NCBI GenBank assembly: GCA_002479645.1
Contig: DLOO01000051.1
Coordinates: forward strand, 75,575-90,477
Direction of reading: 5' to 3'
Length of the DNA: 14,903 nt
From: Lachnoclostridium sp. UBA7482
Lineage (GTDB): Bacteria; Bacillota; Clostridia; Lachnospirales; Lachnospiraceae
The translations under genes and the position numbers were made by a program. The notes under the pieces were generated by a model. That model ran no database searches. It saw only the letters and a list, made by a program, of their open reading frames with translations, and was not told the DNA's origin. This document shows, piece by piece, positions 4,348 through 6,686 of the stretch; within the stretch, counting starts at the first letter, position 1; each line of letters opens with the position of its first letter.

Positions 4348-4380
4348 GTCTCGACTCCGTGCATACGCGCGGGTCGGGAC
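4348..4380 (+). repeat. Palindromic intergenic repeat, copy A (hisD-hisB gap)
   Basis: The outer arms GTCTCGAC (4348-4355) and GTCGGGAC (4373-4380) pair over 8 bp with one U-G. After a 1-nt bulge, the inner arms CCGTGC (4357-4362) and GCGCGG (4367-4372) pair over 6 bp with one U-G, closed by the loop ATAC. The tail ACAGGTAATTT is shared with the units at 6567-6643, which are in the opposite orientation. Confidence 0.85.
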
Positions 4381-4393
4381 AGGTAATTTGATT

Positions 4394-4978
4394 ATGCGCA
4401 GCGCAACCGTAGAAAGAAAAACCAGGGAAACCAATATTACGCTTACTTTGAATCTGGACGGAAAGGGTGTTTCAAATGTAAAGACCGGCATCGGATTTTT
4501 TGATCATATGCTGCAGGGCTTTGCCAAGCACGGTCTGTTTGACCTCAAGGTAACCTGTGATGGCGATTTGGAGGTAGACAGTCATCATACCGTAGAGGAT
4601 GTCGGTATCGTTCTCGGCAATGCAATTAAGGAGGCTTTGGGCGATAAGGTTGGTTTGAAGCGCTATGGTAATTTTATGCTTCCGATGGACGAAACCCTGA
4701 TGCTTTGTGCCATTGATTTATCCGGAAGACCGTATTTTGTTTATGATGTCGCAACGACCGTTGACAAGCTGGGGGAGATGGATGTAGAATTGGCAAAGGA
4801 ATTTTTCTATGCGATTTCTTATTCCGCAGGGATGAATCTGCATATCCGTATGTTGAGCGGCGATAATAATCATCATATTCTGGAAGCGATGTTTAAGGCA
4901 TTTGGCAAGGCACTCGATCAGGCAACGCAGATTGACGAACGTATAGAAGGAGTACTTTCCACGAAAGGAACCATTTAG
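4394..4978 (+). CDS. hisB: Imidazoleglycerol-phosphate dehydratase HisB (monofunctional)
   Basis: HisB dehydrates imidazoleglycerol phosphate to imidazoleacetol phosphate, using a two-manganese site. The 194-residue protein has the family motifs in order: TGIGFFDHMLQGFAKH (about residues 33-48), VDSHHTVEDVG (about 64-74), PMDETL (about 98-103) and the second metal motif DNNHHILEAMFKAFGKAL near residue 160. There is no histidinol-phosphatase domain. ATG 4394 gives the usual N-terminus MRSATVERKTRETNI; an in-frame TTG at 4388 would add two residues. The start is unusual because a palindrome separates it from the obvious ribosome binding site. One base separates its stop from hisIE, suggesting translational coupling. 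Confidence 0.95.
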   Translation: MRSATVERKTRETNITLTLNLDGKGVSNVKTGIGFFDHMLQGFAKHGLFDLKVTCDGDLEVDSHHTVEDVGIVLGNAIKEALGDKVGLKRYGNFMLPMDETLMLCAIDLSGRPYFVYDVATTVDKLGEMDVELAKEFFYAISYSAGMNLHIRMLSGDNNHHILEAMFKAFGKALDQATQIDERIEGVLSTKGTI

Positions 4979-4979
4979 G

Positions 4980-6257
4980 ATGAAAGACATTATTGCATAT
5001 ATCAATGCGGAAACCGAATTTTCCGCAAATGTACTGGAGCTTTCACAGGAATACGAGCATAATGGCGCGGACGGCCTGTATATTTACAATTATGATGATA
5101 ATGAAACTGCACAGATGGAATTTTTGCAGACGGTAAAGCTGATTCTGAAGCGTGTGGATATTCCGCTTTATATCGGCTGCGTTGTAAAGCGTTTTGAAGA
5201 TGTAAAGAAGGCGCTTTATACCGGCGCTTCCTATGTAGTAATTCCCTACGATGCCAGGTATCCGGAAAAAGAAGTGCAGATTGCCATTGAACGTTTCGGT
5301 AGGGATAAGATTTATGTTGAGTTTAATGCGGACCGCAATGCGCCAAGCAGAGCTTACGAAAAGGCCGGTCTGATTTCCGAATTAAAGGAAAAAGGCATTG
5401 CCGGATTTTTCTTCAAGCATGTTTCATTGAACGATTCCATGCAGCAGTTATTTGCCGAAGCAGACGCGCCTGTGATTATCCGCGACAGCCTGGTACGTAA
5501 CGACATCGAAAGTGTTTTGGCAACCGATGGCGTGGATGGCATCGCAACAAATTATTATCGGGAGAAAAACATTCTTCCGGTTAAGAAGACCCTGGCTGAA
5601 AACGGAATCGAGACGAAATGCTTAAAGAGCAGTATGGCATTTTCCGAGTTCAAGTTAAATGCGGATGGTCTGATTCCGGTTGTCGTGCAGGATTACCGCA
5701 CGCTGCAGGTTCTTATGGTTGCTTATATGAACGAAGAAGCCTTTCTTTCTACGATTGAAACCGGTAAGATGACTTATTATTCCCGCAGCCGAGAGGAACA
5801 GTGGGTGAAGGGGGAAACCTCCGGTCATTATCAGTATTTGAAGGAAATATCCGTGGACTGCGACAAGGATACGCTGCTTGCGAAGGTGCATCAGCTTGGA
5901 GCTGCCTGCCATACCGGCAACACTTCCTGCTTCTACACGCCTTTGGCAGCAAAAGAGTACGACTCTTACAATCCGCTTACGGTGCTGACCGAGGATTATA
6001 ATATCATTCTTGATCGTAAAGTGAATCCAAAGCCCGGTTCCTATACCAATTATCTTTTTGAAAAGGGAATCGATAAGATTCTGAAAAAATGCGGTGAGGA
6101 GGCAACGGAGATTACGATTGCCGCCAAGAATCCGGATGCAGAAGAACTCAAGTATGAAATTGCCGATTACCTCTACCATTTGATGGTTCTTATGGCGGAG
6201 TGCGATGTGGACTGGAATGACATCGTAAAAGAATTGGCTAACCGTAGAAAGTCCTGA
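4980..6257 (+). CDS. hisIE: HisIE (phosphoribosyl-AMP cyclohydrolase / phosphoribosyl-ATP pyrophosphatase) with N-terminal degenerate HisF-like domain
   Basis: The 425-residue protein has three parts. Residues about 222-330 are HisI, the cyclohydrolase, with VAYMNEEAF, WVKGETSGH, DCDKDTLL and the cysteine motif AACHTGNTSCF. Residues about 345-420 are HisE, the pyrophosphohydrolase, with KCGEEATEITIAAKN and ELKYEIADYLYHLMVLM. Residues 1-212 resemble a HisF/HisA TIM barrel, with GADGLYIYNY (29-38), IPLYIGCVVKRFEDVKKAL (61-79) and KKTLAENGIETK. In this part both catalytic Asp positions are Asn (N9, N116), and the glycine-rich phosphate loops read GCV and RDS. The domain is therefore probably structural or regulatory (inference). 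AAAGGA 4964-4969 inside hisB provides a ribosome binding site 10 bases upstream. Confidence 0.92.
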   Translation: MKDIIAYINAETEFSANVLELSQEYEHNGADGLYIYNYDDNETAQMEFLQTVKLILKRVDIPLYIGCVVKRFEDVKKALYTGASYVVIPYDARYPEKEVQIAIERFGRDKIYVEFNADRNAPSRAYEKAGLISELKEKGIAGFFFKHVSLNDSMQQLFAEADAPVIIRDSLVRNDIESVLATDGVDGIATNYYREKNILPVKKTLAENGIETKCLKSSMAFSEFKLNADGLIPVVVQDYRTLQVLMVAYMNEEAFLSTIETGKMTYYSRSREEQWVKGETSGHYQYLKEISVDCDKDTLLAKVHQLGAACHTGNTSCFYTPLAAKEYDSYNPLTVLTEDYNIILDRKVNPKPGSYTNYLFEKGIDKILKKCGEEATEITIAAKNPDAEELKYEIADYLYHLMVLMAECDVDWNDIVKELANRRKS

Positions 6258-6273
6258 GAGAGAGGAAAGTAAA

Positions 6274-6399
6274 ATGGATTTTATTGCAGAATTGGTACGA
6301 AGCATGTTTTCTTATGTTGTTTATGTGGTAATCGCCGCAGCAGGCTTTATGCTTGGCATGTTCGTAAGAAAAAAGAAGGATCGGAAGAACGAAAAATGA
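6274..6399 (+). CDS. Small single-pass membrane protein, 41 residues, unknown function
   Basis: An ATG at 6274 preceded by AGAGGAAAG (6261-6269) opens a 41-codon frame ending at TGA 6397-6399, 16 bases after hisIE. The protein has an amphipathic start (MDFIAELVRSMF), one hydrophobic span at about residues 13-31 (SYVVYVVIAAAGFMLGMFV), and a basic tail RKKKDRKNEK that predicts a cytoplasmic C-terminus. I do not recognise a named family. The ribosome binding site, operon position and clean one-span design argue that it is real. It would be co-transcribed with the his genes, but no link to histidine metabolism can be seen. Confidence 0.65.
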   Translation: MDFIAELVRSMFSYVVYVVIAAAGFMLGMFVRKKKDRKNEK

Positions 6400-6474
6400 T
6401 TTGCATAATCCGGTGATTGTCGGCGCCGGTACTTGCATTTATTGGATTTTTCAGGCATTTTTTTGAAAAAAGTA

Positions 6475-6503
6475 TTGCATTCACCGAAATGTTGTGCTAT
6501 ATT
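6475..6503 (+). promoter_or_regulatory. Extended -10 promoter of the rimP-nusA-infB operon
   Basis: TTGCAT (6475-6480) and TATATT (6498-6503) are separated by 17 bp, and TGC directly precedes the -10 box, giving the extended -10 form. Transcription should start near 6510, producing a leader of about 195 nt. Confidence 0.72.
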
Positions 6504-6529
6504 ATTACAGTAACATATAGGCTAAAGTA

Positions 6530-6560
6530 AAGGAGTGGGCAAAAGTCCACTCCTTGTTTA
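6530..6560 (+). promoter_or_regulatory. Attenuator-like hairpin in the rimP leader
   Basis: Bases 6530-6540 pair with 6545-6555 (outer part AAGGAGTGG with CCACTCCTT, inner part GC with GT including one G-U), giving an 11-bp stem closed by AAAA. The tail TTGTTTATTA is U-rich but interrupted, as in weak or NusA-dependent terminators. NusA autoregulation through leader termination is known for the B. subtilis ylxS(rimP)-nusA operon; that this hairpin does the same is inference. Confidence 0.6.
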
Positions 6561-6566
6561 TTACCT

Positions 6567-6599
6567 GTCCCGACCCGCGCGCATGCGCGGCGTCGAGAC
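6567..6599 (-). repeat. Palindromic intergenic repeat, copy B
   Basis: GTCCCGAC (6567-6574) and GTCGAGAC (6592-6599) flank an inner stem CCGCGC/GCGCGG with loop GCAT on the + strand. Read on the - strand it matches copy A: 8 bp with one U-G, a bulged G, and 6 perfect bp. It is followed by TAAAATTACCT, which links it to copy C with a 44-bp period. Confidence 0.85.
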
Positions 6600-6610
6600 T
6601 AAAATTACCT

Positions 6611-6643
6611 GTCCCGACCCGAGCGTACGCTCGGCGTCGAGAC
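6611..6643 (-). repeat. Palindromic intergenic repeat, copy C
   Basis: This is the second tandem unit, 44 bp after copy B, with identical outer arms. The inner part 6619-6634 is a perfect 16-bp palindrome (CCGAGC/GCTCGG around GTAC). Compared with copy B, a C-G pair is replaced by A-T in the stem, a paired change. Confidence 0.85.
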
Positions 6644-6654
6644 TAAAATTGACT

Positions 6655-6686
6655 GTCCCGATTGCTGTGTACGCTCGGGTCGGGAC
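6655..6686. repeat. Palindromic intergenic repeat, copy D (degenerate hybrid)
   Basis: This is the third unit in the same 44-bp register. Its outer arms GTCCCGAT (6655-6662) and GTCGGGAC (6679-6686) still pair. The inner stem is broken on the left (TGCTGT), while its right part (GTACGCTCGG) is intact. It looks like the left half of one orientation joined to the right half of the other. Confidence 0.7.

What the first reader, a model, noticed from the sequence alone, without database searches (positions are those of the whole stretch)
4348..6686. Family of intergenic palindromes with paired stem changes, probably acting as RNA hairpins
Four copies share outer arms around a variable inner stem. 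Read in the orientation of copy A (+ at 4348-4380; - at 6567-6599 and 6611-6643), the inner arms are CCGTGC/GCGCGG, CCGCGC/GCGCGG and CCGAGC/GCTCGG: the fourth pair is U-G, C-G and A-U, so pairing is kept while sequence changes. The outer arms contain a T/G mismatch that is a U-G wobble on this strand but A/C on the other. That asymmetry suggests selection on RNA of one strand. All three have a 1-nt bulge at the same place and the shared tail ACAGGTAATTT. I do not recognise a named family.
Basis: partly seen in the sequence, partly recalled or inferred. Interest (0 to 1): 0.72.

Follow-up and report, generated by a model that had tools for sequence, protein, structure and literature searches.

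The report
Species-specific, insertable bacterial DNA hairpin family
Short hairpin-forming DNA pieces have spread between genes of one uncultured bacterium, lining up in rows and even lying inside one another's loops; they behave more like small mobile DNA hairpins of the REP type than like RNA switches.

Summary
The palindromes are real: three match the description, the fourth is a rearranged hybrid. The same hairpin occurs at 28 places (17 loci) in the own genome, a Lachnospiraceae-like MAG about 80% complete; 347 other sampled family genomes gave no match at E <= 0.001 under strict filters. Inner-stem covariation holds in 18 copies. The argument for RNA of one strand fails: the T/G pair is one state of a mismatch kept in 21 of 24 copies, other G·T and A·C pairs are about equal (7 and 9), and the window's two loci are read in opposite orientations. 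Evidence for insertion: both window sites lack it in the two nearest relatives; a sister hairpin with the same mismatch and bulge is present at 9 and absent at 12 junctions of a longer repeat; and hairpins lie in loops of other hairpins at three loci, once three deep. Fixed mismatch, bulge and one-sided foot recall REP substrates of single-strand (HUH Y1) transposases. No such gene was found in this incomplete genome and the GTAG tag is missing: it works like a REP, but membership is not shown.

The parts
4348..4380 (+). Hairpin copy A (33 nt: 8-nt arm, 1-nt bulge, 6-bp inner stem, 4-nt loop), between hisD and hisB
   Evidence: DNA fold z -3.75 on this strand, -1.98 on the other
4381..4390 (+). 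3' foot AGGTAATTTG of copy A; its AGGT may now act as the hisB Shine-Dalgarno (inference)
   Evidence: G017 and G006 have an AGGAGG-type site just before the hisB ATG
4333..4342 (+). AAAGAAAGGA, probable ancestral hisB Shine-Dalgarno, now cut off from the ATG at 4394 by copy A (inference)
6567..6599 (-). Hairpin copy B in the rimP leader
6611..6643 (-). Hairpin copy C, direct repeat of copy B at 44-bp period
6600..6610 (-). 11-nt linker/foot AGGTAATTTTA between copies B and C
6655..6686 (-). Hybrid fourth palindrome; right half (6669-6687) is an inverted copy of 6610-6628
   Evidence: (E 0.16)
6530..6555 (+). rimP-leader hairpin AAGGAGTGGGCAAAAGTCCACTCCTT, with counterparts in G017 and G006; the array lies between it and rimP

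Best explanation
The repeats are copies of a small, non-coding, insertable DNA hairpin (core 31-34 nt plus a short conserved foot on one side) that spread in the recent history of one Lachnospiraceae species. SUPPORTED BY COMPARISON: the two window sites were gained in this lineage or lost in both nearest relatives; copies form head-to-tail arrays of about 44 bp period, occur in both orientations to genes, and keep a mismatch at the fourth pair and a one-base bulge at position 9 while the rest of the stem is paired. A sister hairpin with the same two irregularities sits in some copies of a longer repeat and not in others. Hairpins also lie in the loops of other hairpins. INFERRED: the active form is the folded single strand, and a single-strand-DNA enzyme of the HUH Y1 (TnpA-REP/IS200) kind recognises mismatch, bulge and foot and pastes copies into accessible single-stranded DNA, including the loops of resident hairpins. 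Tandem duplication and template switching then enlarge and scramble the arrays. Effects on genes (for example cutting hisB from its old ribosome-binding site) would be by-products. Rough odds: insertable element 0.85; HUH-type enzyme 0.45.
For: 28 distinct places at 17 loci in the own genome (36 hits at E <= 1, of which 8 are the same places on the other strand; 150 of 548 candidates scored). No match at E <= 0.001 in 347 other family genomes; of 60 relatives one weak match, G020, E 0.006. hisD-hisB and rimP-leader sites lack it in the nearest relatives G017 and G006. Fourth outer pair Watson-Crick in 3 of 24 copies against 160 of 168 cells for the other seven outer pairs. Longer repeat: 12 uninterrupted and 9 hairpin-bearing junctions among the own loci read; 0 of 21 other genus genomes hold the sister hairpin. 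Nesting at C71:18546, C21:5992 and C35:4519. E. coli REPs carry a mismatch bulge that TnpA-REP needs; the unpaired state, not the sequence, seems to matter (PMC8266576, passages).
Against: No PF01797 match and no NF047646 match above cut-off (best E 0.087) in the own genome, though it is only about 80% complete; in the genus 6 of 22 genomes have Y1_Tnp, not the two nearest. No GTAG tag. No clean target-site duplication seen: at the composite junction five bases of the empty form are replaced, and flanks at hisB and rimP are too diverged to tell. The strand-of-replication bias expected of a Y1 system is only a trend (11 of 15 loci, p = 0.12; 12 of 17 with the two weak ones). 28 places is few for a REP (usually over 100 per genome: PMC2817692, abstract start). 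Nested forms could come from paired deletions in arrays, and their computed folds are not better than shuffles.
Confidence: 0.6

Rival explanations
1. Strand-specific RNA hairpins (leader, processing or stabilising elements) kept by selection on the transcript.
Against: Fourth pair unpaired in 11 of 18 copies; G·T 7 against A·C 9 outside that pair; orientation to genes mixed (4 against 9, my reading); a C/T copy folds better on the other strand; varied host genes; absent at the same genes in G017 and G006; no Rfam match on the hairpins in window 4200-7000.
Confidence: 0.1
2. Palindromes created, copied and homogenised by replication template switching and tandem duplication, with no dedicated enzyme.
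For: Copy 4's right half is an exact inverted copy of copy 3's left half; truncated and half copies in or beside arrays; template switching can create stems and compensatory changes (PMC8794818, abstract).
Against: Spread over 17 loci on 11 contigs; template switching would be expected to erase the mismatch and bulge (inference), yet they are kept; conserved foot and similar nesting position.
Confidence: 0.2
3. Double-stranded protein-binding sites (for example for a nucleoid or regulatory protein) that spread because they are useful.
For: Near-invariant outer arms GTCxCGAC/GTCGxGAC; a 44-bp array period is close to four helical turns (recalled helix pitch); REPs elsewhere serve as protein-binding sites (PMC2817692, abstract start in listing only).
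Against: A double-strand reader does not explain complementarity of the variable inner stem, the conserved mismatch and bulge, or nesting.
Confidence: 0.1

Closest known systems
REP / REPIN elements with TnpA-REP (RAYT), e.g. E. coli REPs
   Same: 20-40 bp palindromes between genes, conserved unpaired bases in the stem (E. coli type), conserved short motif at one foot, arrays and mosaics
   Different: Foot is ATTACC(T) on one strand (AGGTAAT on the other), not GTAG; 14-bp stem; head-to-tail arrays where E. coli BIMEs alternate; no transposase found; hairpins in loops. Note: REP-like structures beside TnpA subclasses 2.6 and 3 also lack GT[AG]G (PMC6006769, passages)
CGTC-tagged REPs (PMC3733652, CGTC section read)
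   Same: No dedicated transposase known; short hairpins; one strand of ours begins TGTC, which is a variant of their tag
   Different: Theirs: 8-9 bp stems with AT at the first two positions, mostly CCA tails, predominantly head-to-head dimers, mostly in alpha-Proteobacteria
Selfish palindromes of Volvox organelle DNA (PMC2670323, passages)
   Same: Palindromes inserted within palindromes, average 50 nt, in noncoding DNA, loops of 3-5 nt
   Different: Organelles of a green alga, different sequence; no conserved mismatch or foot mentioned in the passages seen
IS elements that target REPs, e.g. IS1397 (PMC1525189, passages)
   Same: Palindromic units as insertion targets
   Different: There a full IS enters a REP; here a hairpin lies in a hairpin of its own family

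Membership tests
REP (GTAG) with RAYT | GT[AG]G tetranucleotide at the 5' foot of the hairpin | tested here: not met
   25 copies aligned with flanks: one foot is mostly A-G-G/A-T-A-A (ATTACC(T) on the other strand), no shared GTAG. Some TnpA subclasses have REP-like structures without this tag (PMC6006769, passages), so this excludes only the canonical type
REP (GTAG) with RAYT | Imperfect stem with conserved unpaired position (E. coli type) | tested here: met
   21 of 24 copies not Watson-Crick at pair 4; bulge at position 9
REP (GTAG) with RAYT | RAYT/TnpA-REP gene in the genome | tested here: inconclusive
   None found in the own genome, but it is about 80% complete
REP (GTAG) with RAYT | Intergenic and multicopy, usually over 100 copies per genome | tested here: inconclusive
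   Between genes at the loci read and 28 places, below the usual number
REP (GTAG) with RAYT | Single-strand cleavage at the foot by the enzyme | not testable with these tools
   needs biochemistry
CGTC REP | 8-9 bp stem beginning AT, CCA tail, head-to-head dimers | tested here: not met
   14-bp interrupted stem, AGGTAAT foot, head-to-tail arrays, against PMC3733652 section 6
Rfam RNA family | Match at gathering score | tested here: not met
   window 4200-7000: three sub-threshold matches, none on the hairpins
Strand-specific RNA element | Constant orientation to transcription and G-U favoured over A-C on the sense strand | tested here: not met
   4 against 9 loci (my reading); 7 against 9 pairs

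The most novel reading that the evidence does not exclude
A self-nesting mobile DNA hairpin of bacteria: a 33-nt element whose preferred target is the single-stranded loop of another copy of itself, moved by a single-strand enzyme not yet known (or lost), giving hairpin-in-hairpin structures up to three deep and supplying modules to longer composite repeats. It would be a bacterial counterpart of the nested palindromes of algal organelles.
Probability: 0.3. Interest if true: 0.65.

Novelty: new variant of a known kind. Interest (0 to 1): 0.45.

Why it matters
The best-studied REP elements have a tagged foot and a RAYT gene (recalled, and passages). Here a comparable hairpin with its own mismatch and bulge spread in one Lachnospiraceae species with no detected enzyme, lies in loops of its own kind and was taken into a longer repeat. 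That makes two questions testable: which enzyme moves tag-less REP-like hairpins, and whether loops of folded DNA are insertion targets. It also shows that covariation alone does not prove an RNA function.

Tried and rejected
RNA-strand reading: tested by pair types and orientation, not supported. Rfam: nothing on the hairpins in window 4200-7000; the rest of the window was not searched. RAYT/Y1 in the own genome: none. Y1 genes of relatives: 7 of the 8 loci L098-L105 were scanned for strong hairpins (L104 was not); those found are different. Wider occurrence: a strict pattern with 20 fixed bases gave 4 single hits in 84,980 species genomes, in unrelated taxa, taken as chance, and none in viral contigs; this pattern matches only 11 of the 28 own places, and records near the own genome may be left out of those collections. 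Replication-strand bias: 11 of 15 loci, not significant. Assembly gaps at arrays: gaps are common elsewhere too, so not used as evidence. Folds of two nested stretches are not better than shuffles (z -0.96 and -1.05), so nesting rests on sequence layout. Print: in PMC3733652 'firmicutes' and 'clostrid' do not occur; in PMC12306157 'clostridi' and 'lachnospir' do not occur, but a table there lists three Bacillota genomes with counts that I did not read further, so REP-like repeats in that phylum are on record. I found no paper on this family in searches, which cover only the held library.

Rows dropped: one search counts 24 of the 28 places (hybrid copy 4, one partial and two gap-broken copies left out); one search uses the 18 of those 24 that are 33 nt long; the orientation tally leaves out L037 (divergent genes), L038 (unclear) and the two weak loci L049 and L050; a BLAST hit inside a gene (C11:28233, E 0.15) was taken as chance. 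One weak copy (L120) fits the structure badly and supplies 2 of the 7 G·T and 2 of the 9 A·C pairs.
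Full report
OBSERVATION. The three palindromes at 4348-4380 (+), 6567-6599 (-) and 6611-6643 (-) are as described: an 8-nt arm, a 1-nt bulge, a 6-bp inner stem and a 4-nt loop. A loose element pattern, drawn up after seeing them, finds the three (6 matches, both strands counted) and nothing in 300 dinucleotide shuffles. The fourth, 6655-6686, is a hybrid: its right half is an exact inverted copy of the left half of copy 3 (19 bp). 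The tail common to the three is ACAGGTAAT; only two run on to TTT.

WHERE THEY ARE. The window lies in G000:C63, a 2.05 Mb assembly in 87 contigs, 80% complete. Named relatives among the best HisB matches are Lachnospiraceae MAGs. Genes by Pfam: a HisZ/HisRS-like protein, HisG, HisD, HisB, a HisA-like/HisI/HisE fusion, RimP, NusA. Copy A lies between hisD and hisB; copies B, C and the hybrid lie between a rimP-leader hairpin, with counterparts in G017 and G006, and rimP.

FAMILY. A covariance model of 14 copies gave 36 hits at E <= 1 in the own genome, with 150 of 548 candidates scored: 28 distinct places at 17 loci on 11 contigs (8 hits are the same places on the other strand; the loci C21:74663, C60 and C10 are weak). 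In 20 own sources including the window, 341 kb chosen because most hold copies, there were 34 hits at E <= 0.05; in 397 kb of G017 and G006, none at E <= 1. Of 60 relatives (21 of the same genus), one had a weak hit, G020, E 0.006. Of 348 family genomes only the own one matched at E <= 0.001 (strict filters that lose weak matches, and they returned only 16 of the own hits). A strict pattern in 84,980 species genomes gave four single hits in unrelated taxa and none in viral contigs; it matches 11 of the 28 own places.

STRUCTURE. In 18 copies of equal length, 6 of 14 pairs change on both sides (3 of 500 shuffles reach this) and no shuffle of 500 reaches the covariation score. The shuffle does not correct for relatedness; slid controls are clearly lower. 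Ten copies not used in the model also pair: 51 of 60 inner cells are Watson-Crick, and the four plain mismatches all lie in one weak copy. The fourth outer pair is C/T 12, T/G 6, T/T 2, G/A 1, and Watson-Crick in 3 of 24 (two of these three in weak copies); the other seven outer pairs are Watson-Crick in 160 of 168 cells. So the position is kept unpaired with changing letters. A bulge at position 9 fits every copy but one weak one. One flank is conserved: A in 24 of 25 at +1, then mostly G, G/A, T/A, A, A; at -1, A in 21 of 25.

RNA OR DNA. If RNA of one strand were selected, G·U should beat A·C on that strand; outside pair 4 the counts are 7 and 9. The hisB copy is co-directional with its genes, the rimP array opposite; over 13 loci I read 4 against 9 from the ORF maps (p 0.27). 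Template switching can itself yield compensatory changes (PMC8794818, abstract), and copy 4 looks like such a product. The RNA inference is therefore weak, while the family is real.

INSERTION. (1) Orthologous sites: G017 (HisB 89%, RimP 74% identical) and G006 have no such palindrome at either site; other genomes were not compared in detail. In the own genome the hairpin separates AAAGAAAGGA from the hisB start; AGGT of the foot may serve instead (inference). (2) A sister hairpin, GTCACGATTGGCATTTATGCCACATCGGGAC, has the same mismatch and bulge, 11 pattern matches in the own genome and none in the 21 other genus genomes. It sits in a longer repeat with two further hairpins. Junctions found by one pattern in the loci fetched: 12 uninterrupted (GAGT-GCGCATCC in the clearest), 9 with the hairpin or, in one, a remnant of it (GAGTATA or similar, hairpin, then AC and TTCC or similar). 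Some hairpin-bearing copies lack the pattern's anchor (L146, L148, L152), so 9 is a lower bound. Of 81 matching pieces only the best 30 loci plus the 11 were read. G017 has the uninterrupted form 11 times in the stretches fetched; that pattern can find only uninterrupted ones, but no hairpin was found in G017. The uninterrupted form is thus probably ancestral. By my reading five bases are replaced and no duplication is seen. (3) Nesting: at C71 and C21 one hairpin, and at C35:4519 two successive hairpins, lie in the loop region of a host hairpin, in the same orientation; the guests begin GCCCCGAC; at C71 the host's left inner stem is irregular. Insertions elsewhere in a hairpin would be harder to see, so the preference for loops may be overstated.

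ENZYME. PF01797: none in the own genome; 6 of 22 genus genomes have it, not G017 or G006. NF047646: best E 0.087, 13 bits against a cut-off of 80. The genome is incomplete, so absence is not proof. By GC skew the A strand is on the lagging side at 11 of 15 loci (12 of 17 with the two weakest), a trend only (p 0.12).

COMPARISON. E. coli TnpA-REP requires GTAG and an unpaired bulge whose state rather than sequence seems to matter, and it acts on one strand (PMC8266576, passages). The present hairpin shares the bulge logic and a one-sided foot but not GTAG; some TnpA subclasses have REP-like structures without that tag (PMC6006769, passages). CGTC REPs differ in stem, tail and dimer layout (PMC3733652, section 6). 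Palindromes inserted in palindromes are described for Volvox organelles (PMC2670323, passages). IS elements that enter REPs are described for bacteria (PMC1525189, passages).

VERDICT. A species-restricted, insertable DNA hairpin family that works like a REP element but fails the canonical tag test; the transposase is not found. Mobility in evolution is well supported; the enzyme and single-strand route are inferred; an RNA role is unlikely as the main explanation.

Noticed in passing
L146-L186 (own genome; e.g. C22:3100-3234, C11:39495-39631, C33:11127-11267): A longer (about 135 bp) composite repeat built of hairpins (GAGTTTCGC..GCGAAACTC and TTCCATAGGAAATT..AATTTCCTATGGAA) with 81 matching pieces in the own genome; G017 has a related composite with different hairpin letters.
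   Followed up: partly
window 14504-14575 and 14832-14903: The last 72 bases of the contig are an exact inverted copy of a stretch 256 bases upstream inside the same reading frame; probably an assembly artefact at the contig end.
   Followed up: partly
window 4980-6257: Fusion protein with a HisA-like N-terminal part followed by HisI and HisE domains.
   Followed up: no
window 6530-6555: Hairpin in the rimP leader (GGAGTGGG..CCACTCC) with counterparts upstream of rimP in several genus genomes; Rfam gave no match above threshold there.
   Followed up: no
L102, L103 (G002, G004): Y1-transposase frames of 338 and 358 residues (stop to stop) containing an MPRKPR start and a long part after the Y1 domain; the hairpins studied here were not seen beside them.
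   Followed up: partly
L152 (C63:62883, 62925) and L155 (C78:21415, 21457): The sister hairpin is tandemly doubled with a 42-bp period inside the composite repeat.
   Followed up: no
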